From the NCBI RefSeq assembly GCF_900112415.1, contig NZ_FOLV01000022.1, forward strand, positions 1 to 58,271: a DNA stretch of 58,271 nucleotides, in the 5' to 3' direction. This stretch comes from Bacillus sp. 491mf. GTDB taxonomy: Bacteria > Bacillota > Bacilli > Bacillales > Bacillaceae_G. The notes beneath the pieces are model-generated. The model ran no database searches and was not told where the DNA came from. It worked only from the letters and a program-made list of their open reading frames with translations. The position numbers were made by a program, and so were the translations under genes. Below, piece after piece: positions 95 through 41,276 of the stretch (the first letter of the stretch is position 1; each line of letters begins with the position of its first letter).

Positions 95-221
95 TTATTA
101 TCAATACATTTTGGTATGTAATATTGCATATTGAAATGTGTTTTAAATTCTCTTCTATTTTTATGAGGTCATAGATTAAGTGATGCAGGGGGAAATTGGT
201 TGTTATTTTTTAAAGATAGGA

Positions 222-9439: not shown

Positions 9440-10162
9440 TTATAAAATGTTTCGTAAAAATTGCTTCGCACGCGGATTTGACGGAGCGGTGAAAAATTGT
9501 TCTGGGGCTGCATCCTCTACGATTTGTCCGTCATCCATAAAAATAATGCGGTCAGCTACTTCACGGGCAAATCCCATTTCATGCGTGACGATAATCATCG
9601 TCATACCTTCTTTGGCGAGGTCTTTCATAACTTGTAGTACTTCTCCGACGAGTTCAGGATCGAGGGCTGAGGTAGGTTCATCGAATAACATAATTTTTGG
9701 ATTCATTGCGAGTGCTCTTGCAATAGCAATTCGCTGTTTTTGACCACCAGATAAAAGATCGGGTGTTACATTCGCTTTATCTTTCAATCCAACCTTTTCT
9801 AGTAATTCGTAGGCAATGTTTGTTGCTTTTATTTTATCTAACTTTTTGACGTGAATAGGAGCTTCAATGATGTTTTCTAATGAGGTCATATGAGGAAATA
9901 AGTTGAAATGTTGAAAAACCATACCGACATTTTCACGGACTTTGTTTAAGTTTGTATGTTTCAGATGAATTTGTTCTCCCTGTATCGAAACTTCTCCATT
10001 ATCATACACTTCCAGGAAGTTTAAACAGCGGAGTAATGTACTTTTCCCTGAACCACTCGCACCGATTAAGACAACAACTTCCTTTTCTTCTACGTGTAAA
10101 TTGACGTTTTTTAATACGTGTAAAGACCCAAAGGATTTTGTAAGATTTTGAACTTGTATCAT
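9440..10162 (-). CDS. Polar amino acid ABC transporter ATPase
   Basis: The 240-residue protein has Walker [10 protein letters not shown], signature LSGGQKQR, Walker [13 protein letters not shown] and the H-loop [16 protein letters not shown], all typical of the GlnQ/TcyC subfamily. It energises import through the permease and lipoprotein encoded next. It is the first gene of the leftward operon, with a GGAGGGGG RBS immediately before the ATG. No riboswitch was recognised upstream. Confidence 0.92.
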
Positions 10163-10439
10163 GCATCCCCCTCCAACGAAATATAGATGTATAAAAATAA
10201 CTTATTTCTGTTAATTAGTCATAAATTGTCAAATTCCTTTATTTTTGTAAAAAAATCAAAAGGCTATCGGTTGTCGCATATAAATAGAAAACAGGAAAAT
10301 TTGTTATTTTTGAAAGTAGAAGTGAAGAATAACTCGACTAATAGTATTTATATAGAAAGTTTAGATGTGATGAGGATGAAAAGAAAAATGAGGAATTAAA
10401 ACGAAGAAGAAAAAGCGATTAAATTGTCAAATTTAGAGA

Positions 10440-10748
10440 GCATATGTGAAGCCCTAGAATGTTAACCAGGTGACATTCTAGATTATAAGAACTTAAATCG
10501 AGGGGAATATATCACGATGCCCTCTCAAGCTAAGAACGTAATAAAACAGCCTTTTCAAAAAGGGTGATGACATAAGCCTCAAAAGCACAAGTCAACATAA
10601 AGTAATGAATTAAAGTTTATATACGTAAAAGGCTTTCGGTTATTAAAAAACAATTTCATTAATTATCGTAATGCCTCTTATCAGCAGCCAAGGTGTGCAA
10701 CAACTAAAAAAGGTCCCTTAGACGCGTTATAAAGGGACCTTTTTTAGT
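10440..10748 (+). ncRNA. candidate structured small RNA with terminator
   Basis: The gap between the ABC operon and the VOC gene has several hairpins in a row on the plus strand. CTAGAATGT pairs with ACATTCTAG (10454-10482). GAGGGG pairs with CCCTC (about 10500-10525). AGCCTTT pairs with AAAGGCT at longer range (about 10548 and 10629). A strong final hairpin, AAAGGTCCCTT with AAGGGACCTTTTTT, ends near 10746. No open reading frame with an RBS was seen. The terminator is symmetric enough to work in both directions. It resembles no riboswitch class that I could recognise. No convincing promoter was found; the assignment is tentative. Confidence 0.35.
10706..10748. terminator. Strong bidirectional terminator
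   Basis: AAAAAAGGTCCCTT and AAGGGACCTTTTTT form an extended stem flanked by A and T runs. It could terminate the VOC gene (minus) and the candidate small RNA (plus). Confidence 0.85.
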
Positions 10749-10794
10749 TTTCATAGTTGTTTATAAAAATTCATCTCATGTTTTGTGAAATTCT

Positions 10795-11356
10795 AAGTTG
10801 ATGAGCATGATGCGAACCTTAGATTGTTATTTCAATTTGATTTCCTTCTGGATCACTTACTACACTTTCATAGTATCCATCGCCAGTAAAACGAGGTTCA
10901 CTTAATATAGGATAGCCAGCTTCTCTTAATGTTCCCGTTAATTGATTTACGTTATTCTTGTTTCCGGCAGAAAAAGCTAAATGAGCATATCCAGTAACTT
11001 CATTTTTCGGTTTATTCTTTACTCCTTTCTTTCGCATAATTTCTATACGTGCCCCCGTTTCAAATGTAATAAAATAAGATTCAAATTGTTTTGTTTCATT
11101 ACGATATAAATTATTAGCTTTACCTTTAAAATATTTAGTATAAAATGAGCGCATTAATTCTAAATCATTTACCCAAATAGCTATATGTTCAATCTTCATT
11201 ATCTTCACCTTTCAATTCAAAGTCTTATTTTGATTTTCTTATAAAAGAAGGAAATCAAAAAATGCCATAAGTGGAAAATTAAATTTTTAATCCAAAAAAA
11301 TTGTTCGTTTTTTTACACTTGGGGGCAAGGGATTTTCTCAAGTTGATGGGCATGAT
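10795..11356 (+). repeat. 17-bp direct repeats flanking the VOC gene
   Basis: AAGTTGATGAGCATGAT (10795-10811) and AAGTTGATGGGCATGAT (11340-11356) differ at one base and bracket the VOC gene. Apart from the second copy, the 11200-11504 gap is AT-rich and featureless to my eye. Confidence 0.5.
10819..11199 (-). CDS. VOC-superfamily (glyoxalase-fold) protein
   Basis: The 126-residue protein has the paired beta-alpha-beta-beta-beta modules of the vicinal oxygen chelate fold. It begins MKIEHIAIWVNDLELMRSFY, with the first metal-ligand His, and ends with SDPEGNQIEI, carrying the terminal Glu. Members include glyoxalase I, fosfomycin and bleomycin resistance proteins and dioxygenases; the substrate cannot be assigned. 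The ATG at 11199 is chosen because AAAGGTG lies seven bases upstream; a GTG three codons earlier has no clear RBS. It is downstream of and co-oriented with the MFS gene of the azasugar-type cluster, and flanked by 17-bp direct repeats. Confidence 0.8.
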   Translation of the reverse strand: MKIEHIAIWVNDLELMRSFYTKYFKGKANNLYRNETKQFESYFITFETGARIEIMRKKGVKNKPKNEVTGYAHLAFSAGNKNNVNQLTGTLREAGYPILSEPRFTGDGYYESVVSDPEGNQIEITI

Positions 11357-11504
11357 AATTAAGGGAGTAATTCTTTTATTTCGATACTAATCACGTATAT
11401 CTCTTAAGAATTTACTCGCAGGGACTTTTATTTTCTTTTTATTTATTAAAGCCATATTTAAGATTATAAAACTTAATTAAGACTAATAAACAAATTTTAT
11501 ATGT

Positions 11505-12713
11505 TTAACCTTTATGGTTTTGGTCTAATTCTTTAATAAAGGATAATTGCTTAGTTCCTAATAATTGTATACCAATTATTAGCATTAGCATTATGAACAT
11601 GATGCTGGCAAAAAACCAAAAAGAAATATGGACAGGATAAGTATCCATGCTGTGTCCAATCATAACAGGGATTACGGATCCGCCAAATCCGTTCATAGCT
11701 AATAATATACTAGTTGTTTTTTCTGTCTGACCTGGAAAATATTTATTGGTAATAATTAAAGCAATAGCAAACATTGCTGCCATACATAAACCTAGTAAGA
11801 AGCAAAGAAAGAAGCCAATCCAAATATTGTTATTTAATCCGAAGGCTATAAGAACTAATAAGCCCCCAATATTTATAAATAGTAAGAAAGAATTATAGGT
11901 AAATTTTTCTGAAATGCTCCCCGTTAATGCACGTCCTATTACCATTGCTAGCCAATAAATTGTTACAGTCACGGTGGCCAGTGAATTTGAAATACCCCAT
12001 TCCTCTCTAAATATTGAAGGTAAAAAATGAACAATAGATACCTCACTCCCACCATAACAAAAGAAATAGATGGCTGAAAATATAATAATGGGAACGGTCT
12101 TTTTTGTGTAAGAACTGATCTTCTGATTAATGGGGGAGGCATCCTTTTTATTTTTAATAAGATACCCATTAATTGTGCCAAAAGATGCGAGTTTCCAACC
12201 AAGCATAACAAGAAAAGAAGAAATACCTAAGAGGAAGAATGCATATTCCCAGATACCGTTACTTATTAGAAAGCTAGAAAAAAGAGGCATGAATAGTGCT
12301 CCCAGTCCAAATGCAACTTCTAGTTTTCCCATTGCCATAGCTTGTTTTTCTTGGAATGTTACTAAAATAATAGTACCGATACAAGATTCGGCTAATCCAG
12401 CACCATATCCTGCTAATGCAACGAGAGGGAAGAGCAAATGCCAATCTGGTAAAAAAAATATAAATAATTCAAGGCTAATTAGAAATAATCCAATGACTAC
12501 AACATGCTTCCTCCCTAGTTTCTGAACTAAAAAGGGCATGCTAATTACCCCAAGCAGAAAACCAATGAATTGACTAAAAATAAGTACACCGCCATTACTA
12601 TAGTTTTGTTTATAGTGAGTTAATATTTCAGGTAGCAGTGCACCAATGACAACTAAAGTAAATGCAATTATCATGTAAGAAAAAAAGCTAATCCATAACA
12701 AACGATTTTTCAA
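11505..12713 (-). CDS. MFS transporter, divergent to the azasugar-type trio
   Basis: The 402-residue protein has about 12 hydrophobic helices and MFS loop signatures such as VQKLGRKHVVVIG between helices 2 and 3. It resembles FucP/NagP-like or drug-export MFS proteins but I cannot assign a substrate. It starts at a TTG with AAGGAGG eight bases upstream; no ATG is near. It diverges from the aminotransferase across a 334-bp control region. This suggests shared regulation and a possible role in exporting the cluster product or importing a sugar precursor (inference). Confidence 0.8.
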   Translation of the reverse strand: MKNRLLWISFFSYMIIAFTLVVIGALLPEILTHYKQNYSNGGVLIFSQFIGFLLGVISMPFLVQKLGRKHVVVIGLFLISLELFIFFLPDWHLLFPLVALAGYGAGLAESCIGTIILVTFQEKQAMAMGKLEVAFGLGALFMPLFSSFLISNGIWEYAFFLLGISSFLVMLGWKLASFGTINGYLIKNKKDASPINQKISSYTKKTVPIIIFSAIYFFCYGGSEVSIVHFLPSIFREEWGISNSLATVTVTIYWLAMVIGRALTGSISEKFTYNSFLLFINIGGLLVLIAFGLNNNIWIGFFLCFLLGLCMAAMFAIALIITNKYFPGQTEKTTSILLAMNGFGGSVIPVMIGHSMDTYPVHISFWFFASIMFIMLMLIIGIQLLGTKQLSFIKELDQNHKG

Positions 12714-12948
12714 TTATACCGCCTCCTTAGTAACAAGCATATTTTGATAAGATTGTGAAACTAATACGGTTAATTATTTAACAATTTCTAATTATACTAA
12801 AAAATAACAAAATATTTTAATTATTTTATCGATTGTAACTTTCTCAATATGTTTACGTTATTTTAACTTGTGATGGAATAATTTACAGTATATTATAATT
12901 TTGTTATTTAATAACATTTTTAAAGTTGTAGCACTTATGAGATGCAAT

Positions 12949-12998
12949 CATACTCAACTATTGGTTCGTTAGGAGGGCCCCCTAACGTAATGAGTGTG
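12949..12998. promoter_or_regulatory. GC-rich dyad in the divergent control region
   Basis: CGTTAGG (12967-12973) and CCTAACG (12981-12987) flank AGGGCCC. Outer arms CATACTCA (12949-12956) and TGAGTGTG (12991-12998) can also pair, allowing one G-U. In this very AT-rich gap the element stands out. It could be an operator for a regulator encoded elsewhere or a 5'-UTR hairpin. The remaining 12714-12948 sequence is AT-rich with no clear promoter. Confidence 0.55.
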
Positions 12999-13047
12999 CT
13001 CATGATTATTATTTTGACATTAATAAAATAATAGGAGTGTTGTAAAG

Positions 13048-14322
13048 ATGAATGGAAAAGTTAAAAATCCAACAAGTCCTGATAGCCTTTACTATAAAGT
13101 TGATGATGTTGTTATGGAGAGAGGCGAAGGAATCTATCTTTATGATCAGGATGGGAATAAATATTTTGACTGTGCATCAGCTACATTTAACTTAAATTTG
13201 GGCTATAGCAACAAAGAGGTAATTGATGTAGTGAAAAATCAAATGGATAATCTTATACACGTTACTTCTTCGTATCAGACAGATGCTGTAAACACATTAG
13301 CACAAAAACTTGTTGAAATCGCTCCTAGTAATCTAACAAGGGTACACCCAAAGGTTAGCAGTGGTTCAGCAGCGAATGAGGGTGCTATTAAAATGGCACA
13401 ATATAATACTGGTAAACGTGACGTTATATCTTTATTTCGAAGTCATTTGGGACAAACTTACATGATGTCAGCACTTTCAGGTAATGCTTTTCGAAGAGAA
13501 CCGTTTCCACCTCAATTTTCATTTGGGTTACAAGTTCCAGACCCTTATTGCTTACGTTGTTTTTATAATCAAAAATCAGATTCTTGTGGCATGTTATGTG
13601 TTGAAAGAATTAACGATTTTATTGAATATGCCAGCACAGGAAATGTTGCTGCAATTATAGTTGAACCGATATCCGGTAATGGCGGGAATATAGTTCCTCC
13701 TAAAGGCTATTTTCAAGCACTGAAAAAGTTATGCGAAGAGCGTGATATTGCATTAATTTTTGATGAGATACAAACTGGATTTGGCAGAACAGGTAAAATG
13801 TTTGCTGCTGATTACTTTGATGTCCAGCCAAATATGATGACTGTAGCAAAAGGGTTAGGTGGAACCGGATTCCAAGTAGCGGCAATTCTTACTGAGGAAA
13901 AGTATGGAGGTATGCCTGGACATCATCACTCATTTACGTATGGTTCGAATGTAATGGCCTCTGCAGCAGCATGTACTACAATTGAAATTCTACAAAGACC
14001 TGGTTTCTTAGAAAATGTAACTGTGGTGGGGAATTATATCATGGGGCGTTTAGAGGGAATGAAAGAGAAATTTAAGTTTATTGGAGATGTAAGAGGAGTC
14101 GGGTTAATGATTGGGGTTGAAATTGTGAAAGATAACAATGAACCTGATGTTGAGCTGACTAATCATATTGCCAAACGTGCTATGGATCACGGCATAATTA
14201 TTAGAACATCAAGATATGGCTATGGAAATGTATTTAAAGTTCGTCCACCTCTTACTATTACTTTGAGTGAAGCAGAAGAACTATGCTATAGATTAGATAG
14301 ACTACTGGAGGAAATAAAATGA
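13048..14322 (+). CDS. Class III PLP aminotransferase (GabT1-like, azasugar type)
   Basis: The 424-residue enzyme is a fold-type I, class III transaminase. FDEIQTGFGRTG contains the PLP-ring Asp239 and Gln242, and TVAKGLGG contains the Schiff-base Lys268. A Cys-rich CLRCFYNQKSDSCGMLC segment (near residue 172) is common in this class. It starts after AGGAGTG. Its stop overlaps the next start (ATGA), and the next two genes encode a sugar phosphatase and a zinc dehydrogenase. This trio matches B. amyloliquefaciens gabT1-yktC1-gutB1. There the transaminase aminates C2 of fructose 6-phosphate to give 2-amino-2-deoxymannitol 6-phosphate. Family assignment is firm; the substrate is inferred from context. 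A GABA or diamine transaminase is the alternative. Confidence 0.85.
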   Translation: MNGKVKNPTSPDSLYYKVDDVVMERGEGIYLYDQDGNKYFDCASATFNLNLGYSNKEVIDVVKNQMDNLIHVTSSYQTDAVNTLAQKLVEIAPSNLTRVHPKVSSGSAANEGAIKMAQYNTGKRDVISLFRSHLGQTYMMSALSGNAFRREPFPPQFSFGLQVPDPYCLRCFYNQKSDSCGMLCVERINDFIEYASTGNVAAIIVEPISGNGGNIVPPKGYFQALKKLCEERDIALIFDEIQTGFGRTGKMFAADYFDVQPNMMTVAKGLGGTGFQVAAILTEEKYGGMPGHHHSFTYGSNVMASAAACTTIEILQRPGFLENVTVVGNYIMGRLEGMKEKFKFIGDVRGVGLMIGVEIVKDNNEPDVELTNHIAKRAMDHGIIIRTSRYGYGNVFKVRPPLTITLSEAEELCYRLDRLLEEIK

Positions 14323-15266
14323 AAAACTACATTATTGAGTTGGGGAAATACGTATACAATCAAATAAAAAATCAAAAGGGAACTTTAAAGAACCGCATAG
14401 TAAATGGGTACTCACCGGGTGGAGATGCCCAATTTAATATTGACGAAGCAGCAGAAAAAGCAGTTCTTGATTATATATTAGAAAAAAAAGAGCCTGTTGT
14501 ATTTTATACCGAGGATGGTGGATTGAAAACTTTTGGGGAGAATCCAGAATACATCCTAATTATAGATCCAATTGATGGTACTCGTCCTGCAGCAGCAGGT
14601 TTGGAAATGTCATGTATATCAATTGCATTAGCGAAGTACAAAGATAATGCGAAAATTAAAGATATTGAATATGCTTTTTTAATGGAACTTAAAACAGGAA
14701 ATTATATGTACGGTGATATTTTTTCGAATTCGATAGAATTTGAAGGATATAATAGCCAATTACCAAATTTAAGCCAAGACAAAGAAATTAAAAATATGTT
14801 TTGGAGTTTTGAGTTTAACGGTCATCCTACTAAATTAATGATAGAATCCTATGGTCATTTAATTGATGAATCTGCAAACAATGGCGGAGTATTTATATTT
14901 AATAGCGCGTCATATTCTATTTCAAGGATTATTACAGGACAGATGGATGCATATGTTGATATTGGAAACAGACTGCTTAAAGATTCCCCAGAATTATTAG
15001 ATGATTTCCAAAGAGTAGGAAATGGTCAGGTATTACATTTATTTCCATATGATATAGCCGCAAGCGTATTTTTAGCAAAAAAGGCAGGAGTAATGATTAC
15101 TGATGCATATGGGAAATCTTTAGATGAAACATTGTTAACAGACCTTAGTTATAGTAATCAACAGTCATGTATAGCGGCTTCTACCAAAGAATTACACCAA
15201 AATCTATTGGAACAAATTAATTGGAAACGGAGCGAAAAAAAATATGAAGGCATTGGTATGGACTGA
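14319..15266 (+). CDS. Inositol-monophosphatase-family phosphatase (YktC1-like)
   Basis: The 315-residue protein has the metal-binding motifs of the IMPase/FBPase superfamily: TEDGG (about residue 66), DPIDGTRPAAAG (about residue 87, in place of DPxDGTxNF) and the C-terminal YDIAASVFLAKKAG. It should hydrolyse a sugar or polyol phosphate with magnesium. The ATG overlaps the aminotransferase stop by four bases and follows GGAGG, so the two are translationally coupled. In the azasugar pathway this step removes phosphate from the amino-mannitol phosphate. It is longer than typical IMPases (about 260-270 residues), with extra sequence between residues 120 and 190. Confidence 0.82.
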   Translation: MKNYIIELGKYVYNQIKNQKGTLKNRIVNGYSPGGDAQFNIDEAAEKAVLDYILEKKEPVVFYTEDGGLKTFGENPEYILIIDPIDGTRPAAAGLEMSCISIALAKYKDNAKIKDIEYAFLMELKTGNYMYGDIFSNSIEFEGYNSQLPNLSQDKEIKNMFWSFEFNGHPTKLMIESYGHLIDESANNGGVFIFNSASYSISRIITGQMDAYVDIGNRLLKDSPELLDDFQRVGNGQVLHLFPYDIAASVFLAKKAGVMITDAYGKSLDETLLTDLSYSNQQSCIAASTKELHQNLLEQINWKRSEKKYEGIGMD

Positions 15267-16290
15267 AAATAAACAATTAGAATATAAGGAAGTAGAAGAG
15301 CCAAAAATACAAAAAAATAATGACGTAAAGGTCAAAATATATGGGACTGGAATATGTGGAACTGATCTAAATGTATTAAAGGGAAAAATGTATGCTGCAC
15401 CAAACATGGTTATGGGGCATGAATCAGTTGGTGTAGTAGTTGAAGTAGGAGAAAACGTAAAAAATGTAAAGGTAGGGGATCGCGTAGTAATTGATCCTAC
15501 TCAATTTTGCGGAAAATGTTATTTTTGTAGAAAAGGATTAACATGTTATTGCGAAGAATTTGATGATTGGCAATTGGGAATTGGTTCTCATGGAACATTT
15601 GGAGAATATTATGTTGGAGAAGATAGATTTATTTATAAATTGCCTGAATCAATGGAATGGGAAAGAGCAACTCTAATTGAACCTCTTGCTTGTGTTCTTA
15701 GTGTTATAGAAAAAGCAAACATAAAGCCCCATGAATCAGTTTTAGTCTTAGGATCAGGACCAATAGGGTTGTTAGTTCAATTAATTGTGCGAAAGCTTGC
15801 TAGAATTACAGTCGCAACAGAAATTGGTCATTTTAGAGCAGAGGCAGCAAAAAAAATAACTAAATATGTGTATCATCCTCAAGACCTGTCTTTAGAAGAG
15901 GTTCTTCGTATTAACCAGGGAAGAAAATTTGATGTAATTTTTGATGCGATAGGCAATCAACTTGAATGGGCATATCCACTGATTGAAAAGGGCGGGAGAC
16001 TGATACCTATGGGGTTTGATGACACTTATGAGTTTACAGTCAAACCTTTTGAACTCTTATCAAAAGGCATTACAATTATAGGGACAGGGGAAGCTCATCA
16101 CATGATGGAAAAAGCTTTGTCATGTGCAATAGATTTACCTGAATTATCAAGTTTAATTACAGATAAAGTACTACTTGAAGATTTTAATAGCGCTATTGGA
16201 GATCTAATAGGTATTGATCCAATTACTAATGAAAGAAAAGATATTCAGTCTATAAAGACTATCTTAGTCTCCGAACCTGGTGTTATATAA
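15244..16290 (+). CDS. Zinc-dependent medium-chain dehydrogenase (GutB1-like)
   Basis: The 348-residue protein is a medium-chain dehydrogenase of the sorbitol/threonine dehydrogenase type. Visible features are the catalytic zinc Cys in GICGTDLN, GHESVG, the structural zinc cysteines in CGKCYFCRKGLTCYC, and the NAD-binding VLVLGSGPIGLL (about residue 166). It overlaps the phosphatase gene by 23 bases and has GGAG upstream. In the gabT1-yktC1-gutB1 pathway it would oxidise C6 of 2-amino-2-deoxymannitol so that the amine closes into a piperidine (mannojirimycin/nojirimycin). That role is inferred from the cluster; a generic polyol dehydrogenase is the alternative. Confidence 0.85.
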   Translation: MKALVWTENKQLEYKEVEEPKIQKNNDVKVKIYGTGICGTDLNVLKGKMYAAPNMVMGHESVGVVVEVGENVKNVKVGDRVVIDPTQFCGKCYFCRKGLTCYCEEFDDWQLGIGSHGTFGEYYVGEDRFIYKLPESMEWERATLIEPLACVLSVIEKANIKPHESVLVLGSGPIGLLVQLIVRKLARITVATEIGHFRAEAAKKITKYVYHPQDLSLEEVLRINQGRKFDVIFDAIGNQLEWAYPLIEKGGRLIPMGFDDTYEFTVKPFELLSKGITIIGTGEAHHMMEKALSCAIDLPELSSLITDKVLLEDFNSAIGDLIGIDPITNERKDIQSIKTILVSEPGVI

Positions 16291-16308
16291 CCGGTTAGAA
16301 TAAAAATA

Positions 16309-16339
16309 GTAAAAAGAACCTAGCAAAAGGTTCTTTTTT
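16309..16339 (+). terminator. Terminator of the azasugar-type operon
   Basis: AAAAGAACCT pairs with AGGTTCTTTTTTT, 20 bp after the dehydrogenase stop codon. Confidence 0.85.
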
Positions 16340-16458
16340 TAGGTTTCTTTCATGGTAGTTGAACTGTATTTTATCTTTGATTGGTATAGCTTTGGAGCAA
16401 TCCATATAATTAGTTGGTTCTTAATGAACTTTATAATTAACTAACAAAACGAGGGTAA

Positions 16459-16654
16459 GCAACGGAGCTTACTTTGAAAGAAGCGACAGAAAATATTATG
16501 GAAGTAGCAATCTCTGAAGAAATCCCAGCAAGAACACAGGAATTTGTTTGTGTAATGATGAAACAATCTGAAAATATGATATGATCAGCTATCAAGAGAT
16601 TTAGAGAAACGCGCAGTAGAATTAAAAAAGACAATTGCGCAGTTTATGGTATAG
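16459..16654 (+). pseudogene. Decayed coding fragment, possibly a chemoreceptor C-terminus
   Basis: One frame reads KEATENIMEVAISEEIPART then QEFVCVMMKQSENM and hits a stop. After a frameshift near 16580 another frame reads LSRDLEKRAVELKKTIAQF to a stop at 16654. The helical, Glu/Gln-rich text resembles the end of a methyl-accepting chemotaxis or similar sensor protein. There is no start codon with an RBS. It is a remnant downstream of the azasugar-type operon, perhaps marking its insertion site. The rest of the gap up to argR is AT-rich and otherwise empty. Confidence 0.45.
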
Positions 16655-16826
16655 GGAAGAATGAGGATTGTTCTTCCTTTTTATTTTGTTGGAGGTGTAT
16701 CAAATTTTGATACATTATATAGAAAAGTAAAAATATGAACGTTTCCGTAACATTTACCTCTATCCCTTTTAGATGGAAATTATAGCAAGATATAATAAAG
16801 CTATAATATTAGAAGGAGTGTCTTTC

Positions 16827-17276
16827 ATGAAAAAAGAGAAAAGACAACAACTAATTAAACAATTGGTGAGAGAGAATGAAATAGATAGACAAGAAAAATT
16901 GGTAGAGTTGTTAGAGGAACGGGGGGTATCTGTTACACAAGCAACGATTTCTCGAGATATTCATGAATTAAATGTAGTAAAGGGATCTTCGGCAAAAGGA
17001 CAAGTTATATATAAGATTTTTACAGACGAGAAGAGGAGGGCAGATATACAGTTAAAGAAAAAGTTAAAAGAAGTTGTTATACAAATCGATTATATAGAAC
17101 AGATGACTATTATTAAAACTTTGCCTGGGAATGCTCATGTTATTGGGGCCTTATTAGATGAACTAGATTGGAAAGAAAAAATAGGATGTGTATGTGGGAA
17201 TGATACATGTCTTGTAATTTCTGGATCAAAAGTAGAAAGGGAGATTTTAAAAGATAGATTGAATTTGATTATGTAG
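16827..17276 (+). CDS. argR: Arginine repressor/activator ArgR-family regulator
   Basis: The 149-residue protein has the ArgR winged-helix domain (SVTQATISRDIHELNVVK, residues about 34-51) and the C-terminal hexamerisation/arginine-binding domain ending in CVCGNDTCLVI, whose Asp binds arginine. The ATG at 16827 follows AGAAGGAGTG, so an upstream in-frame ATG at 16773 is not needed. Placed before arcA, it likely adjusts the arginine deiminase operon to arginine supply. Many Bacillus genomes carry two or more ArgR paralogues, and this one is the arc-linked copy. Confidence 0.9.
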   Translation: MKKEKRQQLIKQLVRENEIDRQEKLVELLEERGVSVTQATISRDIHELNVVKGSSAKGQVIYKIFTDEKRRADIQLKKKLKEVVIQIDYIEQMTIIKTLPGNAHVIGALLDELDWKEKIGCVCGNDTCLVISGSKVEREILKDRLNLIM

Positions 17277-17297
17277 GTACAAATTAAAAAACCAACA

Positions 17298-17460
17298 TAA
17301 AACCATTCTTTTTAGGTGGACGAGCGTATCTGGCCGTGCATAGAAGCGATTAAGACCTGTTTCTGCCACATGCGAAGTAAAAACAAAGGAAGAAAGCGAG
17401 TATAGGATCATTTTTTTCTACATAGCAGCAATCTATATGTCGAAAAATCAAAATATATTT
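17298..17460 (-). repeat. bcr1-like interspersed repeat, copy E (inverted, full length)
   Basis: It reads TAGGTGGACGAGCG, CTGGCCGTGCATAGAAGCG, CTGTTTCTGCCACATGCGA, TACATAGCAGCAATCTATATG in reverse-complement order relative to copies A and B. Confidence 0.65.
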
Positions 17461-17471
17461 ATACATATAAA

Positions 17472-17516
17472 TGAGAAGGCTGTTTCTAATGAAAATTAGA
17501 ACAGTCTTTTTTAATT
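17472..17516 (+). terminator. Terminator downstream of argR
   Basis: AAGGCTGTTTCTAAT pairs with ATTAGAACAGTCTT, followed by TTTTTT. It is about 200 bp past the argR stop, beyond the inserted repeat copy. Confidence 0.75.
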
Positions 17517-17534
17517 TATATATACAAGTTGAAA

Positions 17535-17625
17535 AACGATATAAAACCTAGGGGGAGGCGAGAGCATTTGGTTGCGCATCGAAATGACTTATATGTCCAA
17601 GAACGAAAATGAATGTATACATAAG
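17535..17625 (-). repeat. bcr1-like interspersed repeat, copy F (internally deleted)
   Basis: Both ends are present (TAGGGGGAGGCGAGAGCATT and CTTATATGTCC with the AT-rich tail), but the central part is missing. Its outer ends resemble copy E, which lies in tandem with it. Confidence 0.5.
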
Positions 17626-17765
17626 GTTTAAGCAACAATCAGAAGGGGTGTTTGTATCTTTACTGACGGAAAGCTCTCATCAATCGGGATGTTTCTAATA
17701 TATTTCTTATATGAGATAAAAAATTTCAACTTCAAATAGGCGGCCATTATACAGCTAATATGCGT

Positions 17766-17804
17766 GATATTTCACCTTATTAGTTAATTATGAAGTGAAA
17801 TATC
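17766..17804. promoter_or_regulatory. Inverted repeat GATATTTCAC / GTGAAATATC upstream of arcA
   Basis: Perfect 10-bp arms at 17766-17775 and 17795-17804 are 19 bp apart. A third related half-site, TGTGAAATATTCCAC, lies at 17845-17859. These resemble Crp/Fnr-family (TGTGA-N6-TCACA) half-sites, so ArcR or Fnr is the likely ligand; ArgR is the alternative. Confidence 0.5.
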
Positions 17805-17866
17805 TTATAAAAATACAATTACATATCGTTTTTAAAAAATAATTTGTGAAATATTCCACTTAGTAA

Positions 17867-17880
17867 TGTTAGCGTTTTCA
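17867..17880 (+). promoter_or_regulatory. cre-like site in the arcA promoter
   Basis: TGTTAGCGTTTTCA matches the cre consensus with one mismatch and lies 72 bp upstream of the arcA start. CcpA control of arginine deiminase operons is known in related bacilli. Confidence 0.55.
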
Positions 17881-17951
17881 CAAATCTGTATATGCATTCC
17901 GTTTATTATGTATTTGTAGACAACAAACAAATTTAAAAGGAGGTACAACAA

Positions 17952-19184
17952 ATGAAACATCCGATCCATGTTACTTCAGAAATTGGAGAATTAGAAACGG
18001 TTTTACTAAAGCGTCCTGGTAAAGAAGTGGAGAACTTAACGCCAGATTATTTGCAACAATTATTATTTGACGATATTCCATATTTACCAATTATTCAAAA
18101 AGAGCATGATTATTTTGCGCAAACGTTACGCAATCGGGGTGTTGAAGTTCTTTATTTAGAAACACTAGCAGCTGAGGCGTTAGCTGATAAAAAACTTCGT
18201 GAAGAATTTGTTGATCGTATTTTAAAAGAAGGACAAGCTGATGTAAACGGTGCGTATCATAATTTAAAAGAATATTTACTTTCCTTTTCAAATGAAGAAA
18301 TGATTCAGAAGATTATGGGGGGCGTACGGAAAAACGAAATTGAAGCTAGTAAAAAGACCCACCTGTATGAATTTATGGAAGATCATTATCCATTTTATTT
18401 AGATCCAATGCCAAATCTATATTTTACTCGTGACCCAGCAGCTAGTATAGGTGGCGGTTTAACAATTAACAAAATGAGAGAACCAGCACGGAGACGTGAA
18501 TCATTGTTTATGGAATATATCATTAAACATCATCCACGCTTTGCGAGTCACAATGTACCAGTTTGGTTAGATCGCGATTATCAGTTTCCAATTGAAGGCG
18601 GCGATGAGCTGATCTTAAATGAAGAAACAATTGCGATTGGCGTATCGGCTAGAACATCGGCTAAAGCGATTGAACGTTTAGCGAAAAATTTATTTAGTCG
18701 TCAAAATAAAATTAAGAAAGTACTAGCAATAGAGATTCCAAAATGTCGTGCATTTATGCATTTAGATACAGTATTTACAATGGTTGATTATGATAAATTT
18801 ACAATTCATCCAGCTATTCAAGGTCCAGAAGGAAATATGAATATTTATATTCTGGAAAAAGGAGAGAGTGAAGAAGTTCTTAAAATTTCACATCGTACTT
18901 CTTTAACTGAGGCTTTAAAAGAAGCATTAGGTTTGAGTGAATTGGTACTTATTCCTTGCGGAGGAGGAGATGCGATTGCTTCTGCTCGTGAACAATGGAA
19001 CGACGGATCTAACACACTAGCAATCGCACCGGGCGTAGTTGTTACATATGATCGTAACTATGTATCCAATGCTTTATTACGAGAGCATGGTATTGAGGTT
19101 GTGGAAGTATTAAGCTCAGAATTGTCTCGCGGCCGTGGGGGTCCACGTTGTATGAGTATGCCGATTGTTCGAAAAGATATTTAA
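17952..19184 (+). CDS. arcA: Arginine deiminase
   Basis: The 410-residue cytoplasmic enzyme hydrolyses arginine to citrulline and ammonia, the first step of the deiminase pathway. Diagnostic stretches are [10 protein letters not shown], the substrate-binding [18 protein letters not shown] with the catalytic His, and the C-terminal [12 protein letters not shown], which carries the nucleophilic Cys. Start follows AAAAGGAGG. It leads an arcABDC operon with 27-36 bp junctions. Long upstream control DNA holds Crp/Fnr-like and cre-like sites, which fits induction by arginine and oxygen limitation. Confidence 0.97.
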
Positions 19185-19214
19185 TTTAAATAGAGAAGAA
19201 AGTAGGGATGAGTG

Positions 19215-20213
19215 ATGATGATGACAAAACCAAACTTAAAAGGAAGAAGTTTTCTTGCTGAAAAAGATTTTACAGAGGAAGAATTATTATATCTTATTGA
19301 TTTAGCGGCAGAATTAAAAGAGAAAAAGAAAAATGGTATCCCGCATCATTATTTAGAAGGTAAAAATGTTGCCCTACTATTTGAAAAAACCTCAACTCGT
19401 ACCCGTTGTGCATTTACAGTAGCATGTACAGATTTAGGGGCAAGTCCTGAATACTTAGGTAAAAATGATATTCAGCTAGGAAAGAAAGAATCTGTTGAAG
19501 ATACAGCAAAAGTGTTAGGACGTATGTTTGACGGTATTGAATTCCGTGGATTCTCCCATGCAACAGTAGAATCACTAGCGAACAATTCAGGTGTACCAGT
19601 ATGGAACGGCTTAACAGACATGTGGCATCCGACACAAACACTTGCTGATTTGTTAACAATAAAAGAGCACCTCGGAGAATTAAAGGATAAGAAGCTCGTC
19701 TATGTCGGCGACGGACGTAATAATGTCGCAAATAGCTTGTTAGTTGGCGGCTCAATGGTCGGAATGGAAGTGCACATTTGTACCCCAGAATCATTATTCC
19801 CAGCACAGGAAATCGTTGATATCGCGAAACAATATAGTGACCGGGTAATGGTAACGAGCAACGTAGAAGAAGCTGTTGCAGGTGCTGATGTTATTTATAC
19901 AGATGTATGGGTATCTATGGGCGAAGAAGATAAATTTGCTGAACGTATTGAACTTCTTACTCCATATCAAGTGAACATGGAAATGATTAAAAAGACCGGA
20001 AATGAAAATATGATTTTCTTACATTGTTTGCCTGCATTTCATGATGTAGAAACATTGTATGGAGAGGAAATATATGAAAAATATGGCATAAAAGAAATGG
20101 AGGTAAGTGACGAAGTATTCCGCAGTAAGCATTCAAAAGTATTTGATCAAGCGGAAAATAGAATGCATACAATTAAAGCGGTTATGGCAGCTACTTTAGG
20201 AAATATGGAATAA
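19215..20213 (+). CDS. arcB: Catabolic ornithine carbamoyltransferase
   Basis: The 332-residue enzyme phosphorolyses citrulline to ornithine and carbamoyl phosphate. It has the carbamoyl-phosphate motif STRTR (about residue 57), [11 protein letters not shown] and the ornithine-side HCLPAFHD. Four consecutive start-like codons exist; ATG at 19215 was chosen because GTAGGG lies about seven bases upstream. The gene is 30 bp after arcA. A 12-bp perfect hairpin follows it without a long T run. Confidence 0.96.
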
Positions 20214-23919: not shown

Positions 23920-23951
23920 TAACAAAATTGTGCAAAAGGAGAGATGAGATT

Positions 23952-25616
23952 ATGAACAAAACGTGGTGGAAAGAAGCTGTAGCTTATCAAATTTATCCGC
24001 GCAGTTTTATGGATTCAAACGGTGATGGTATCGGTGATTTACAAGGTATGATTTCAAAGTTAGACTATTTGAAAGATCTAGGCATTGATGTAATTTGGAT
24101 TTGCCCAATGTATAAATCACCAAATGATGATAACGGTTATGATATTAGTGATTATCAAGATATTATGGACGAATTTGGTACGATGGCTGATTTTGATGAA
24201 CTATTAGCAGAAGTGCATAAACGTGATATGAAGCTAATTATTGATTTAGTTATTAATCATACAAGTGATGAGCATCCGTGGTTTATTGAATCGCGTTCTT
24301 CTAAAGATAATCCAAAGCGTGATTGGTATATTTGGCAGGATGGAAAAAATGGGAAAGAACCGAATAACTGGGAAAGTATTTTTAACGGATCTGCTTGGGA
24401 GTACGATGAAACAACGGACCAATATTACTTACATCTGTTCTCACGTAAGCAACCAGATTTAAACTGGCAAAATGAAGAAGTGCGCGAGACTTTATATAGT
24501 ACGGTGAATTGGTGGCTTGATAAAGGAATTGATGGCTTCCGTGTTGATGCGATTAGTCACATTAAGAAGGAAGAAGGATTTAAGGATATGCCGAATCCGA
24601 AAGGGTTAAAGTATGTGCCTTCTTTCGATAAACATATGAATGTAAATGGCATTCAGCCACTTTTAGAAGAGTTAAAAACAAACACGTTTGCCAAGTATGA
24701 TATTATGACTGTCGGCGAAGCAAATGGTGTGAAAATTGAAGATGCTGAGCTTTGGGTTGGAGAAGAGCAAGGGAAGTTTAATATGGTATTTCAATTTGAG
24801 CATTTAAGCTTATGGGATGCAGAAAAGAAAAAAGATCTCGATGTTGTAGGGCTTAAAAAAGTGTTAACAAAGTGGCAAAAAGGGTTAGAAAATAAAGGTT
24901 GGAATGCGCTATATATTGAAAATCATGATAAACCTCGTATTGTTTCTACTTGGGGTGATGACAAACAATATTGGCACGAAAGTGCAACAGCTTTAGGAGC
25001 AATGTATTTCTTTATGCAAGGTACGCCGTTCATTTATCAAGGACAAGAAATCGGGATGACGAATGTTCAGTTCCCGCGTATTGAAGACTATGATGATGTG
25101 GCGATTAAGAACTTATATCGTCAAAAGATTGAAGAGGGAGTACCTCATCAAGAAATTATGGAGATTATTTGGGCATCTTGCCGCGATAACTCACGTACAC
25201 CGATGCAGTGGAGTAACGAAGAAAATGCTGGTTTTACAACAGGTACACCTTGGTTTGGAATGAATCCAAATTATAAAGAAATTAATGTAGACGCGCAGCA
25301 AACAGACGCAAATTCTATTTTAAATTTCTATAAAAAGATGATTGTGCTGAAAAAAGAACATGAAGTGTTTACGTATGGCACGTACGATTTACTGTTAGAA
25401 GATCATCCGCAAATTTATGCGTATACACGTACGTTACATGATGAAAAAGTTGTTGTAATGAGCAATGTATCAAAGAGTGAAGCTGTATATGATGAGACTG
25501 CGTTCGAGCTAAAATGCAATCGTTTGCTTTTAAATAACTATGAAGTAGAAGAGCATGATGCAGTGACAACAATTAATTTAAAACCATATGAAACAAGGAT
25601 TTATCGTGTTTATTAA
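23952..25616 (+). CDS. malL: Oligo-1,6-glucosidase / alpha-glucosidase (GH13)
   Basis: The 554-residue protein is a family 13 glycoside hydrolase. Visible conserved regions are DLVINHTSDEH (region I), GFRVDAISHI with the nucleophile Asp (region II), the acid/base Glu in VGEANG (region III) and ENHDKPR (region IV). Closely similar enzymes cleave isomaltose, panose and maltose-type oligosaccharides inside the cell. The ATG at 23952 follows AAAAGGAGAG; an earlier in-frame ATG lacks an RBS. Linked to the PTS gene downstream, it probably processes (phospho)alpha-glucosides. A trehalose-6-phosphate hydrolase is the nearest alternative. Confidence 0.9.
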   Translation: MNKTWWKEAVAYQIYPRSFMDSNGDGIGDLQGMISKLDYLKDLGIDVIWICPMYKSPNDDNGYDISDYQDIMDEFGTMADFDELLAEVHKRDMKLIIDLVINHTSDEHPWFIESRSSKDNPKRDWYIWQDGKNGKEPNNWESIFNGSAWEYDETTDQYYLHLFSRKQPDLNWQNEEVRETLYSTVNWWLDKGIDGFRVDAISHIKKEEGFKDMPNPKGLKYVPSFDKHMNVNGIQPLLEELKTNTFAKYDIMTVGEANGVKIEDAELWVGEEQGKFNMVFQFEHLSLWDAEKKKDLDVVGLKKVLTKWQKGLENKGWNALYIENHDKPRIVSTWGDDKQYWHESATALGAMYFFMQGTPFIYQGQEIGMTNVQFPRIEDYDDVAIKNLYRQKIEEGVPHQEIMEIIWASCRDNSRTPMQWSNEENAGFTTGTPWFGMNPNYKEINVDAQQTDANSILNFYKKMIVLKKEHEVFTYGTYDLLLEDHPQIYAYTRTLHDEKVVVMSNVSKSEAVYDETAFELKCNRLLLNNYEVEEHDAVTTINLKPYETRIYRVY

Positions 25617-25617
25617 T

Positions 25618-25650
25618 AAAAAAAGATGCTTATATAGCATCTTTTTTTAT
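25618..25650 (+). terminator. Terminator after malL
   Basis: AAAAAAAGATGCT and AGCATCTTTTTTT form a strong stem directly after the stop codon. Confidence 0.9.
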
Positions 25651-25688
25651 ATAAAAATTGTATTTTTAATAAAATTGTTATTGCAATA

Positions 25689-25744
25689 TGAAAACGCTTT
25701 TATTAAAATAAATTTATGAAAACGATTGCGTAAAACGTTTTCGC
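25689..25744 (+). promoter_or_regulatory. Three clustered LacI/CcpA-type operators before the PTS gene
   Basis: TGAAAACGCTTTTA (25689-25702), TGAAAACGATTGCG (25717-25730) and TAAAACGTTTTCGC (25731-25744) all carry the AAACG-N(T/A)TT core. They lie 66-121 bp upstream of the start and probably mix CcpA and a local LacI-type repressor site. Confidence 0.55.
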
Positions 25745-25809
25745 GAGGGGAAATGCAATTATTATTTATACATGAGGGATTGTAATTTAGAAAAAGGAGG
25801 AACAAAAAA

Positions 25810-27450
25810 ATGAAAAAACTTGCATCTTTTGATTTTTGGCAAAAGTTCGGAAAAGCTTTATTAGTAGTAGTAGCGGTTATGCCAGCTGCTGGTTTAATGA
25901 TTTCCATCGGTAAATTAATTGGTATGTCTGCGGGCGATGTATCTGCCGTGCAAATAATTGCTAGAGTTATGGAAGATATCGGTTGGGCAATTATTGTAAA
26001 CTTAAACATTTTATTCGCTGTAGCAATTGGGGGATCTTGGGCAAAAGATCGTGCGGGTGGTGCATTTGCAGCATTGCTAGCATTCGTATTAACGAACCGA
26101 ATTACAGGAGCAATTTTTGGTGTAAACGCTGTAATGTTAGCGAGTTCAAAAGCAAAAGTATCTTCCTTATTAGCGGGAGATTTACTTGTAAAAGATTATT
26201 TCACTTCTGTTCTTGGTGCACCAGCACTTAACATGGGAGTTTTCGTAGGTATTATTTCAGGTTTCTTAGGAGCTACGCTATACAATAAATATTATAACTA
26301 TAATAAATTACCACAAGCATTAGCTTTCTTTAACGGAAAACGTTTCGTACCATTTGTAGTAATTGTTGGTTCTACAATCACTGCTATTATTTTATCGTTC
26401 GTATGGCCATTCATTCAAAGTGGATTAAACGAATTTGGACGCTGGATTGCAGCTTCAAAGGATAGCGCACCAATTGTTGCGCCGTTTGTATATGGAACAT
26501 TAGAACGTTTATTATTACCATTTGGATTGCATCATATGTTAACGATTCCGATGAACTACACAGCGCTTGGCGGATCGTACACAATCTTAACAGGTGCTAA
26601 GGCAGGACAAATTGTAGCGGGACAAGATCCATTATGGCTTGCATGGATTACAGACTTAAATAGCTTAATAACGAAAGGTGATATGAAAGCATATCACGAT
26701 TTATTAAATAATGTTGTTCCAGCACGTTTCAAAGTAGGACAAGTTATCGGTTCAACTGCATCATTAATTGGTATCGCATTTGCGATGTACCGTAACGTAG
26801 ATGTAGACAAGCGTCATAAATATAAACCAATGTTCTTCTCAGCAGCATTAGCAGTATTTTTAACTGGGGTTACAGAGCCGATTGAATTTATGTTTATGTT
26901 TATTGCCCCAGTATTATATGTTGTGTATGCGATTATCACTGGTGTAGCATTCGCATTAGCAGATTTAATTAATTTACGTATCCATGCATTTGGTTTTATT
27001 GAGTTATTAACTCGTACACCAATGATCGTAAAGGCTGGATTAACAAGAGATCTTATTAACTTCTTTGTTGTATCAGCTATCTTCTTTGGATTAAACTTTA
27101 CAATCTTCAACTTCTTAATTAAAAAGTTCAATTTACCAACACCAGGACGTGCTGGTAACTACATTGAGAATGAAGATGGTGCTGAAGAAGCAGCAGTTAA
27201 TGTGAAAGAAGGTTCATTAGCGACAGTGGTTATCGCGCTGTTAGGCGGGAAAAACAACATTGCAGATGTAGATGCTTGTATGACACGTTTACGTGTGACA
27301 GTAAAAGACTTAGATATCGTTGCAAAAGAAGCGGATTGGAAGAAGAACGGAGCGCTTGGCTTAATTGTAAAAGATAAAGGTGTACAAGCTGTGTATGGTC
27401 CAAAAGCTGACGTATTAAAGTCTGATATTCAAGATATTTTAGGGATATAA
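25810..27450 (+). CDS. PTS alpha-glucoside-type EIICB transporter
   Basis: The 546-residue protein is a glucose-family PTS permease with an N-terminal EIIC membrane domain of about 10 helices (LPFGLHHMLTIPMN and TGVTEPIEFMFMF are substrate-site stretches). A C-terminal EIIB domain holds the phospho-accepting Cys in ADVDACMTRLRVTVKD. No EIIA is fused or adjacent, so it must borrow one such as EIIA-Glc, as MalP/GlvC does. It should import and phosphorylate maltose or a related alpha-glucoside. RBS AAAAAGGAGG is strong. The next gene starts three bases after its stop. Confidence 0.9.
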   Translation: MKKLASFDFWQKFGKALLVVVAVMPAAGLMISIGKLIGMSAGDVSAVQIIARVMEDIGWAIIVNLNILFAVAIGGSWAKDRAGGAFAALLAFVLTNRITGAIFGVNAVMLASSKAKVSSLLAGDLLVKDYFTSVLGAPALNMGVFVGIISGFLGATLYNKYYNYNKLPQALAFFNGKRFVPFVVIVGSTITAIILSFVWPFIQSGLNEFGRWIAASKDSAPIVAPFVYGTLERLLLPFGLHHMLTIPMNYTALGGSYTILTGAKAGQIVAGQDPLWLAWITDLNSLITKGDMKAYHDLLNNVVPARFKVGQVIGSTASLIGIAFAMYRNVDVDKRHKYKPMFFSAALAVFLTGVTEPIEFMFMFIAPVLYVVYAIITGVAFALADLINLRIHAFGFIELLTRTPMIVKAGLTRDLINFFVVSAIFFGLNFTIFNFLIKKFNLPTPGRAGNYIENEDGAEEAAVNVKEGSLATVVIALLGGKNNIADVDACMTRLRVTVKDLDIVAKEADWKKNGALGLIVKDKGVQAVYGPKADVLKSDIQDILGI

Positions 27451-37310: not shown

Positions 37311-37460
37311 TTAATACCCTTCTCGATGACTATGATACCATTTCCATTCTGTAGCGATAATATCCTTAATAGAAATATATTTTGGTTTCTAACCAAGAAC
37401 TTCCTTGGCCTTCAAACTTGATGCAATTAACGCATCTGAATCATCTGGTTGAGGCGCATC
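37311..37460 (-). pseudogene. galE: Decayed 3' end of galE (UDP-glucose 4-epimerase)
   Basis: On the minus strand, in a frame different from galT, the text reads PDDSDALIASSLKAKEVLG, an in-frame TAG at 37391-37389, then KPKYISIKDIIATEWKWYHS and HREGY before a normal stop at 37311. This matches the typical GalE tail (xxDxxxLIASSxKAKxxLGWxPxY ... HPxGY). The conserved Trp after LG is replaced by the stop. Only about 50 codons survive; the rest is deleted up to the galT 3' end, whose last codons overlap this sequence. Confidence 0.8.
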
Positions 37461-38949: not shown

Positions 38950-38966
38950 CGTTTCCACCTCACTCA

Positions 38967-40136
38967 TCATCCAATCACTGTAGTTCCACTACCAATGTGT
39001 GCTACATAAAAGATAGGTGCATATCCCACAACTTTGATATATTCATCATAAACATTGTTTTTAAAAGTGTTGGTTTCACTCTCTTTTACTAATGCGATGG
39101 CGCATCCCCCAAATCCTGCTCCAGTCATCCGGGCTCCAAGTGCACCCTTTTGTTTTTGCGCAGCGGCCACCAATGTATCTAATTCAAGTCCGGTTACTTC
39201 ATAATCATCTCTTAAAGATGCATGAGAAGCATTTAATAGCTTTCCGAACTCTTCTAAATCACCTGCAGTAAGAGCTGCTTTGGCTTTTTTTGTACGTTCA
39301 TTTTCGTAAACTGCATGCTTCGCGCGTTTCATTAGGATTTCATCCCCAATAAGACTTTGATTTGCATCAAATTCTGTTTTGCTTAGTTCTCCAAGCGCAT
39401 GAATCTCTAGCTTCGTTTGAAGACGTGCGAGTGCTTCTTCACATTCAGCACGGCGCTCATTATATTTTGAATCTGCTAGTTCACGACGTTTATTCGTATT
39501 CATAATTACAATAGCATAGTCGTCCAAAACAACTGGAACCATTTCATACTCTAACGTATTGGTATCAAGGAGAATCGCTTTGTCTTCCTCACCAAATCCA
39601 ATAGCAAATTGATCCATAATACCAGAATTTACACCAATGAATTCATTTTCAACTTTTTTACCCATTTTCACTAATTCAAGTCGCGTTACGTCTAAGTTAA
39701 ACAAGTCTTCTAATACTACGCCTACAAGTAATTCAAGTGAAGCACTACTGGAAAGTCCCGCTCCATTTGGAATCGTTCCTTCAACTAATAACTCAAAACC
39801 ACAATCTATTTTATGACCTGCTTCTTTCAGTGTTAAGATAACTCCTTTTATATAATTTGCCCAATTCGCATGTTTATCGTAATCTAGTTCATTCAATGTG
39901 AAACTTATTACTCCAAGTTCTTCAAAGTTCGTTGAGTAAACGAATACTCTATCATCCTCACGACGTCTAGCTACTCCGTAAGTTCCATAAGTAATAGAAG
40001 CGGGGAATACATAGCCACCATTGTAGTCTGTATGTTCTCCAATTAAGTTGATACGTCCTGGAGAAAAGTATTGAGTTGTTTCTTGAACGCCAAATACCTC
40101 AGCAAATTTTAAAACTAGCTCACGTTTCTTTTCCAT
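38967..40136 (-). CDS. galK: Galactokinase
   Basis: The 389-residue GHMP kinase phosphorylates alpha-D-galactose at C1. It shows the galactokinase signature [18 protein letters not shown], the ATP-binding [13 protein letters not shown] and the C-terminal [17 protein letters not shown]. The ATG at 40136 follows GGGAGG; the frame extends upstream without a better RBS. It sits between galM and galT in the leftward gal cluster. Confidence 0.96.
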
Positions 40137-41256: not shown

Positions 41257-41276
41257 TTTGACTCTCCTCTACTCCT

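What the first reader, a model, noticed from the sequence alone, without database searches (positions are those of the whole stretch)
11505..16290. Azasugar-type biosynthetic cluster: MFS transporter divergent from aminotransferase-phosphatase-dehydrogenase trio
Seen: a class III PLP transaminase (Lys268), an IMPase-family phosphatase (DPIDGT) and a zinc medium-chain dehydrogenase in one translationally coupled run (4-bp and 23-bp overlaps) with its own terminator, and a divergent MFS gene. Known: the same three families in the same order, gabT1-yktC1-gutB1 of B. amyloliquefaciens, start nojirimycin/deoxynojirimycin biosynthesis by turning fructose 6-phosphate into mannojirimycin. Inferred: this strain makes a piperidine iminosugar, a glycosidase inhibitor, exported or supported by the MFS protein. 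No reductase or dehydratase for later deoxy steps is visible, so the product may be (manno)nojirimycin-like or be finished by unlinked enzymes. I do not recall this cluster at this site in reference B. cereus genomes.
Basis: partly seen in the sequence, partly recalled or inferred. Interest (0 to 1): 0.88.

Follow-up and report, generated by a model that had tools for sequence, protein, structure and literature searches.

The report
Azasugar gene cluster with its transporter
Four neighbouring genes here match a known bacterial gene set for making azasugars, sugar look-alikes that block sugar-cutting enzymes; the kind is already well described, so this is a further carrier rather than something new.

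Summary
Confirmed and, on sequence evidence, supported. Window 11505-16290 holds an intact class-III aminotransferase, IMPase-family phosphatase and zinc dehydrogenase in one overlapping run (4 and 23 bp), with a divergent MFS gene. All four are closest to members of the published Bacillus azasugar three-gene cluster (gabT1-yktC1-gutB1) and its MFS neighbour. Nearest are an unnamed Bacillales genome, G549 (94/90/90/69%), and Brevibacillus fortis (90/89/85/75%). The aminotransferase carries the published signature and sits in the azasugar clade, apart from other class-III transaminases of B. fortis. dN/dS of the trio is 0.04-0.07. The cluster is patchy (1 of 26, 9 of 44 and 1 of 81 genomes in three groups), and an MFS gene accompanies it in three arrangements, suggesting a dedicated transporter. 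Most likely it turns fructose 6-phosphate into mannojirimycin and on to a nojirimycin-type piperidine; published work reports that the Bacillus trio yields 1-deoxynojirimycin in E. coli. The product, the transport direction and an empty site in the B. cereus group are untested. New member of a known kind.

The parts
11505..12713 (-). MFS transporter gene (TTG start, AAGGAGG upstream), orthologue of the MFS gene linked to azasugar clusters; inferred transporter of the product
12714..13047 (.). divergent intergenic region; only the stretch just before the start (ATAATAGGAGTGTTGTAAA) is clearly shared with G549 and B. fortis; hairpin with arms 12967-12973 and 12981-12987, not seen in the related loci
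13048..14322 (+). gabT1-type class III aminotransferase (PLP Lys268; azasugar signature SGNAFRREPFPPQFSFGLQVPDPYCLRC at residues 144-171)
14319..15266 (+). yktC1-type IMPase-family phosphatase (TEDGG, DPIDGT, PYDIAA)
15244..16290 (+). gutB1-type zinc-dependent medium-chain aminopolyol dehydrogenase (C38, H59, E60; C89/C92/C95/C103; Ile236 as in wild-type GutB1)
16311..16338 (+). candidate intrinsic terminator (11-bp stem, T-run)
   Evidence: read

Best explanation
A Bacillus-type azasugar (iminosugar) biosynthetic cluster with its linked MFS transporter. The aminotransferase puts an amino group on C2 of fructose 6-phosphate; the IMPase-family phosphatase removes the phosphate, giving 2-amino-2-deoxymannitol; the zinc dehydrogenase oxidises C6 with NAD+, and the aminoaldehyde closes on itself to mannojirimycin. 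Unlinked host enzymes then epimerise and reduce it to nojirimycin and 1-deoxynojirimycin. The MFS protein most likely exports the product. Shown here: gene content, intactness, orthology of the four genes, active-site residues, purifying selection, repeated linkage of the MFS gene. Carried over from published work on orthologues: the three reactions. Inferred: the final product and the direction of transport.
For: Identity to FZB42-type loci G163/G069/G624: AT 83-84, phosphatase 80-81, DH 73-75, MFS 56-57%; in all three the trio is followed by sulfate-permease-family and sodium/bile-acid-symporter-family genes, the neighbours the paper gives for FZB42. Window joins G549 and B. fortis in a 100/99 aminotransferase clade and G163/G069/G624 in the next, 100/99. 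Signature present. dN/dS 0.042-0.067 for the trio and 0.118-0.137 for MFS against G549 and B. fortis, no inner stops. MFS homologue beside 20 of 22 fetched loci with both AT and DH, window included, in three arrangements: divergent 4, downstream same strand 2, upstream same strand 14. A P. polymyxa record with the HAD-type cluster carries the name GutB1, 2-amino-2-deoxy-D-mannitol dehydrogenase, and an MFS gene. The TYB trio in E. coli gives 1-DNJ (PMC4338435 passage).
Against: No product data. The signature motif is not exclusive: G511 carries it with no dehydrogenase or IMPase homologue beside it, though it has an HAD-family gene three genes on. C. pinensis makes a different azasugar (DAB-1) with related enzymes (PMC8382821). 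The MFS gene is less conserved than the trio, and its best NCBIfam model (TsgA, 68 bits, cut-off 221) says nothing about direction. The sister order of window, G549 and B. fortis is unresolved.
Confidence: 0.85

Rival explanations
1. Same chemistry, different azasugar: the cluster stops at mannojirimycin or nojirimycin, or yields a deoxymanno-, pyrrolidine or otherwise modified product.
For: Late enzymes are not in the cluster. Related clusters make DAB-1, and the authors say the product cannot yet be predicted from the networks (PMC8382821).
Against: All three enzymes are close to the Bacillus type (73-84%), not to the P. polymyxa-like clusters (AT 44-46%, DH 33-35% for P. polymyxa and G047); the Bacillus trio gives 1-DNJ in E. 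coli (PMC4338435 passage).
Confidence: 0.12
2. A catabolic run: the MFS protein imports an amino-polyol or sugar and the three enzymes feed it into metabolism.
For: All three enzyme families also occur in catabolism (family knowledge); the nearest NCBIfam MFS model is not an exporter by name; the linked P. polymyxa gene was called a putative fucose permease in print (PMC8466323 passage).
Against: A phosphatase between transaminase and dehydrogenase wastes phosphate in a catabolic path; the related trio has been shown to work in the making direction (PMC4338435 passage).
Confidence: 0.05
3. Ordinary housekeeping genes: GABA or acetylornithine transaminase, inositol monophosphatase and sorbitol dehydrogenase set side by side.
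For: Broad family names only.
Against: No NCBIfam cut-off is reached among the families shown (25 of 70 for the aminotransferase, best 336.5 bits against 552; 4 of 4 for the phosphatase; 23 of 23 for the dehydrogenase). The AT clade excludes the other class-III rows at 100/100, and the same trio in the same order recurs in G549, B. fortis, G163, G069 and G624.
Confidence: 0.02
4. A recently arrived but silent or decaying cluster.
For: A relic exists elsewhere: in 8 kb of G745 only a dehydrogenase end and MFS pieces are found, no aminotransferase or phosphatase homologue.
Against: Four intact frames, strong purifying selection, intact RBS.
Confidence: 0.05

Closest known systems
gabT1-yktC1-gutB1 (TYB) azasugar cluster of Bacillus velezensis/amyloliquefaciens (FZB42, 140N), PMC8382821 and PMC4338435
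   Same: Same three families in the same order, overlapping genes, divergent MFS neighbour in the three FZB42-type loci examined, aminotransferase signature, 73-84% identity of the trio to those loci
   Different: Different genomic site (between a VOC/glyoxalase-like gene and argR-arcA here; next to sulfate-permease-family and bile-acid-symporter-family genes there); sequence nearer to G549 and Brevibacillus fortis
Azasugar-type cluster of Brevibacillus fortis NRS-1210 (L001, raw contig; genes identified here)
   Same: Four orthologues, 90/89/85/75% identity
   Different: MFS gene lies downstream on the same strand
   Same: Aminotransferase, dehydrogenase and phosphatase with an MFS gene upstream; same signature region
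   Different: HAD phosphatase (shown for P. polymyxa, and G217), other gene order, AT 44-46% and DH 33-35% identical (P. polymyxa and G047)
Other class-III transaminases (GabT, alanine/serine racemase 9wqz, dialkylglycine decarboxylase)
   Same: Family and, by alignment, the PLP-lysine region
   Different: No SGNxFRxxxFP signature in the four B. fortis paralogues or Ilyobacter GabT; no linked phosphatase and dehydrogenase in the annotated Ilyobacter and Natronosalvus loci

Membership tests
Bacterial azasugar three-gene cluster (3GC), Bacillus/IMPase type | Aminotransferase PF00202, phosphatase PF00459 and dehydrogenase PF08240/PF00107 clustered, in that order | tested here: met
   definition from PMC8382821
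Bacterial azasugar three-gene cluster (3GC), Bacillus/IMPase type | Aminotransferase at least 40% identical to GabT1 (network cluster 7 of PMC8382821) | tested here: met
   83-84% to three FZB42-type orthologues; FZB42's own protein was not compared
Bacterial azasugar three-gene cluster (3GC), Bacillus/IMPase type | Signature SGNXFRXXXFPNXXXXXXXLXVPXPYCXRC or its Bacillus form AFRREPFPpqIxSfgLQVPD | tested here: met
   Window 144-171 SGNAFRREPFPPQFSFGLQVPDPYCLRC. Met in the Bacillus form; the printed general form has N after FP and is two residues longer. Not exclusive: also in G511, which has no dehydrogenase homologue beside it
Bacterial azasugar three-gene cluster (3GC), Bacillus/IMPase type | Catalytic residues intact | tested here: met
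   K268 and D239 (AT, 12 rows); E65, D66, D83, D86, D245 (phosphatase, 6 rows); C38, H59, E60 and four structural Cys (DH, 9 rows) invariant; the roles are recalled family knowledge
Bacterial azasugar three-gene cluster (3GC), Bacillus/IMPase type | Transamination of fructose 6-phosphate and production of an azasugar | not testable with these tools
   needs enzyme assay and mass spectrometry
MFS gene linked to azasugar clusters | Orthologue of the cluster-linked MFS gene, next to the trio | tested here: met
   75% to B. fortis, 69% to G549, 56-57% to FZB42-type; 100/100 group of six
MFS gene linked to azasugar clusters | Exports the azasugar | not testable with these tools
   PMC8382821 hypothesises a role in azasugar transport; direction unknown
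Recent insertion into a B. cereus-group genome | Clean empty site in close relatives | tested here: inconclusive
   No close relative of the window's flanks turned up (best listed flank match 80% identity over 223 bases in G345; arc-region matches at most 74%; the list is cut)

The most novel reading that the evidence does not exclude
The four genes form a mobile azasugar module whose MFS gene has been re-attached in different arrangements (divergent, or downstream) as it moved between Brevibacillus, a Bacillales lineage, the B. subtilis group and a B. cereus-group host. In this host, beside the arginine deiminase operon, it makes an azasugar other than 1-DNJ, released as a glycosidase inhibitor against hosts or competitors.
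Probability: 0.12. Interest if true: 0.5.

Novelty: new member of a known kind. Interest (0 to 1): 0.3.

Why it matters
Azasugars are glycosidase inhibitors with drug relevance whose natural role is open. This window adds a carrier next to the arginine deiminase operon of what looks like a B. cereus-group strain. The comparison also shows that an MFS gene accompanies the trio in different arrangements, which strengthens the published guess that it handles the product and makes it an easy knockout test in a known producer.

Tried and rejected
Rfam scan of 10000-20000: no match at gathering threshold. Own-genome search: no genome held. Aminotransferase in viral contigs: 8 pattern matches, none a relative. 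Plasmids: no cluster close to this one; DNA matches in 7 records covering 2-4% of the query; best aminotransferase 48.6% in P. polymyxa, 5 records in all. Flanking DNA in plasmids: 2 records at 69.7 and 72.7% over 5-10% of the query, and none. Repeats at the cluster edges: short two- or three-copy matches only, no evident target-site duplication. Conserved regulatory element in the divergent region: none beyond the RBS; RNA fold z-score -1.45, not significant. Base composition as a sign of transfer: cluster GC 33-37%, GC3 20-28%, against GC 30-40% and GC3 17-35% for the other ORFs listed, so uninformative. Leftover coding-like piece 16440-16640: no Pfam match to the hand-typed peptides and no plasmid DNA match. 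Structure prediction was not run, because sequence identity already settles the families.

Papers: PMC8382821 read in parts 1-4 of 5 (outline, text); PMC4338435, PMC8466323, PMC10904899 and PMC11844564 seen as passages; all others only in search listings. Searches pairing azasugar or nojirimycin terms with Bacillus cereus: 2 papers; a loose 2-of-5 search; 3,952 papers, 15 listed, none of these 15 holding azasugar or deoxynojirimycin; 2 papers; 6 papers, none holding 'Bacillus cereus group'. No listed title or abstract opening reports this cluster in the B. cereus group; the papers of these four searches were not opened for this, apart from the passages named above. The supplementary table of PMC8382821, which underlies its 126 Bacillus hits, could not be read and may include such strains.

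Changed after re-checking: neighbours of the three FZB42-type loci, at first named by eye, were confirmed by Pfam; G511 was found to have an HAD-family gene nearby; the relic in G745 was searched again over 8 kb.
Full report
What is there. Pfam puts them in PF07690, PF00202, PF00459 and PF08240/PF00107. Among the NCBIfam families shown, none reaches its cut-off for any of the four (25 of 70 families shown for the aminotransferase; all 4, 23 and 10 for phosphatase, dehydrogenase and MFS).

Comparison with the known system. Beal and Horenstein 2021 (PMC8382821, parts 1-4 of 5 read) define the azasugar three-gene cluster and an aminotransferase signature. They describe the FZB42 locus with an MFS gene and, after the trio, an anion/sulfate transporter and a bile-acid symporter. 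The window's proteins are 83-84, 80-81, 73-75 and 56-57% identical to theirs. Closer still are G549, an unnamed 5.5-Mb Bacillales genome (94/90/90/69%), and Brevibacillus fortis NRS-1210 (90/89/85/75%). In the aminotransferase tree of 33 rows, the window, G549 and B. fortis form a 100/99 group, joined by the FZB42-type rows at 100/99. The 25 rows on that side stand apart at 100/100 from the four other B. fortis transaminases, Ilyobacter GabT and three more class-III rows. Several of the excluded rows are long branches, and the root is only for drawing. The order within window/G549/B. fortis is not resolved (83/56; open).

Signature. A relaxed form of the published pattern, written by me, was met strictly by 13 of 33 aminotransferases, loosely by 10, and not by 10. 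The window meets it strictly, in the Bacillus form. Against reading too much into it: G511 meets it strictly but has no dehydrogenase or IMPase homologue in 17 kb. Its neighbours are a gene with only sub-threshold FAD-enzyme similarity, a uridine-kinase-like gene and an HAD-family gene. Two other transaminases, a B. fortis paralogue and Ilyobacter GabT, share the PYCYRC end. The trio, not the motif, carries the assignment.

Function kept. Against G549 and B. fortis, dN/dS is 0.042-0.067 for the trio and 0.118-0.137 for the MFS gene, with no inner stops. Synonymous distances are already large (0.68-1.48), so these are rough, and against G163 they are saturated. K268 and D239 of the aminotransferase are invariant in 12 of 12 aligned rows, the zinc-site residues of the dehydrogenase in 9 of 9, and the metal-site acids of the phosphatase in 6 of 6; residue roles are recalled family knowledge. 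Dehydrogenase residue 236 is Ile, as in wild-type GutB1 of PMC4338435; residue 163, Asp in that GutB1, is His here and Glu in the three FZB42-type loci.

The MFS gene. Of 22 fetched loci (window included) where both aminotransferase and dehydrogenase homologues were found, 20 also hold an MFS homologue. The two without are G700, which has an HAD-type trio, and a Streptomyces plasmid locus with no annotated phosphatase. The two kinds of MFS protein form separate groups at 100/100, with 33-37% identity between them in the 8 rows compared. Staying linked through rearrangement fits a role with the product, as PMC8382821 had guessed. Direction is not shown.

Distribution. The aminotransferase at E <= 1e-90 was found in 17 of 398 drawn class genomes, B. 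fortis's own genome included. At E <= 1e-100 it was found in 1 of 26 genomes of the B. fortis genus and 9 of 44 of the G163 genus. DNA of the trio was found in 1 of 81 in the set of G549's relatives, G549 itself. In the order draw, 4 of 397 matched the trio at DNA level (G549, G624, G069, G163) and 6 others matched only single pieces. One of these, G745, keeps only a dehydrogenase end and MFS pieces. This patchiness fits horizontal movement with loss, as PMC8382821 suggests for the cluster in general.

Host and site. The cluster lies between a VOC/glyoxalase-like gene and an argR-type gene, followed by arcA, an ornithine-carbamoyltransferase-family gene, an arginine-ornithine antiporter and arcC. 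A DesB delta-10 desaturase above NCBI's cut-off (665.9 against 500 bits) and, from memory, the arginine deiminase sequence point to the B. cereus group; the species is not established. No genome with close flanks turned up, so the empty-site question stays open. The 84,980-species scan with the aminotransferase returned 3 loci, of which one is close, B. fortis at 90%; the others are 27-28%. That suggests rarity among species representatives, but the scan relies on exact short peptides.

How it works. Known for orthologues (passages of PMC4338435 and PMC10904899): transamination of fructose 6-phosphate, dephosphorylation, and NAD-dependent oxidation of 2-amino-2-deoxymannitol to mannojirimycin. 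The epimerase and reductase to 1-DNJ are unknown, yet the trio in E. coli gives 1-DNJ. Given 73-84% identity in all three enzymes to FZB42-type loci, the same route is the best reading here. The exact final product is inference.

Verdict. A real, intact azasugar cluster with its linked transporter gene; ordinary in kind, apparently unusual in host and site. Interest 0.3.

Noticed in passing
window 16440-16640: A coding-like stretch (LKEATENIMEVAISEEIPARTQEFVCVMMKQSENMI in one frame) bounded by stops between the cluster and argR; perhaps the relic of an older gene at this site. No Pfam or plasmid match.
   Followed up: partly
window 12967-12987: Hairpin CGTTAGG-AGGGCCC-CCTAACG 60-80 bases before the aminotransferase start, not seen in related loci; possible operator or attenuator, fold not significant.
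   Followed up: partly
window 37441-42764: Galactose-pathway genes (uridylyltransferase at 37441, galactokinase at 38967, aldose 1-epimerase at 40225) with an MFS_2 sugar transporter at 41277; from memory uncommon in the B. cereus group.
   Followed up: partly
window 23928-27450: Glycoside hydrolase above the phosphotrehalase subfamily cut-off (573 against 535 bits) but below the TreC equivalog cut-off (631 against 799), next to a PTS IIBC of unknown sugar (TIGR02003).
   Followed up: no
L048 and L074 (genomes G511 and G582): Azasugar-like aminotransferase (61-63% to the window). In L048 it is followed by a weakly FAD-enzyme-like gene, a uridine-kinase-like gene, an HAD-family gene, a FemAB/GNAT-like gene, an ATP-grasp/amino-acid-ligase-like gene and a Met-tRNA-synthetase-like gene; G582 shares the neighbour next to the aminotransferase (by eye). 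Possibly an undescribed natural-product cluster.
   Followed up: partly
L047 (genome G207): Aminotransferase 58% identical to the window's beside an amino-acid-kinase-family gene and a large ORF without a significant Pfam match; no phosphatase or dehydrogenase homologue in 17 kb.
   Followed up: partly
L076 (genome G745): Decayed azasugar cluster: dehydrogenase C-terminal piece and MFS fragments only, no aminotransferase or phosphatase homologue in 8 kb.
   Followed up: partly
L001 15821-17137 (Brevibacillus fortis): Staphylopine-dehydrogenase-family gene (PF10100) a few genes after the azasugar cluster; with the two ORFs before it (no Pfam match) it may be an opine-metallophore set (recalled).
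   Followed up: partly
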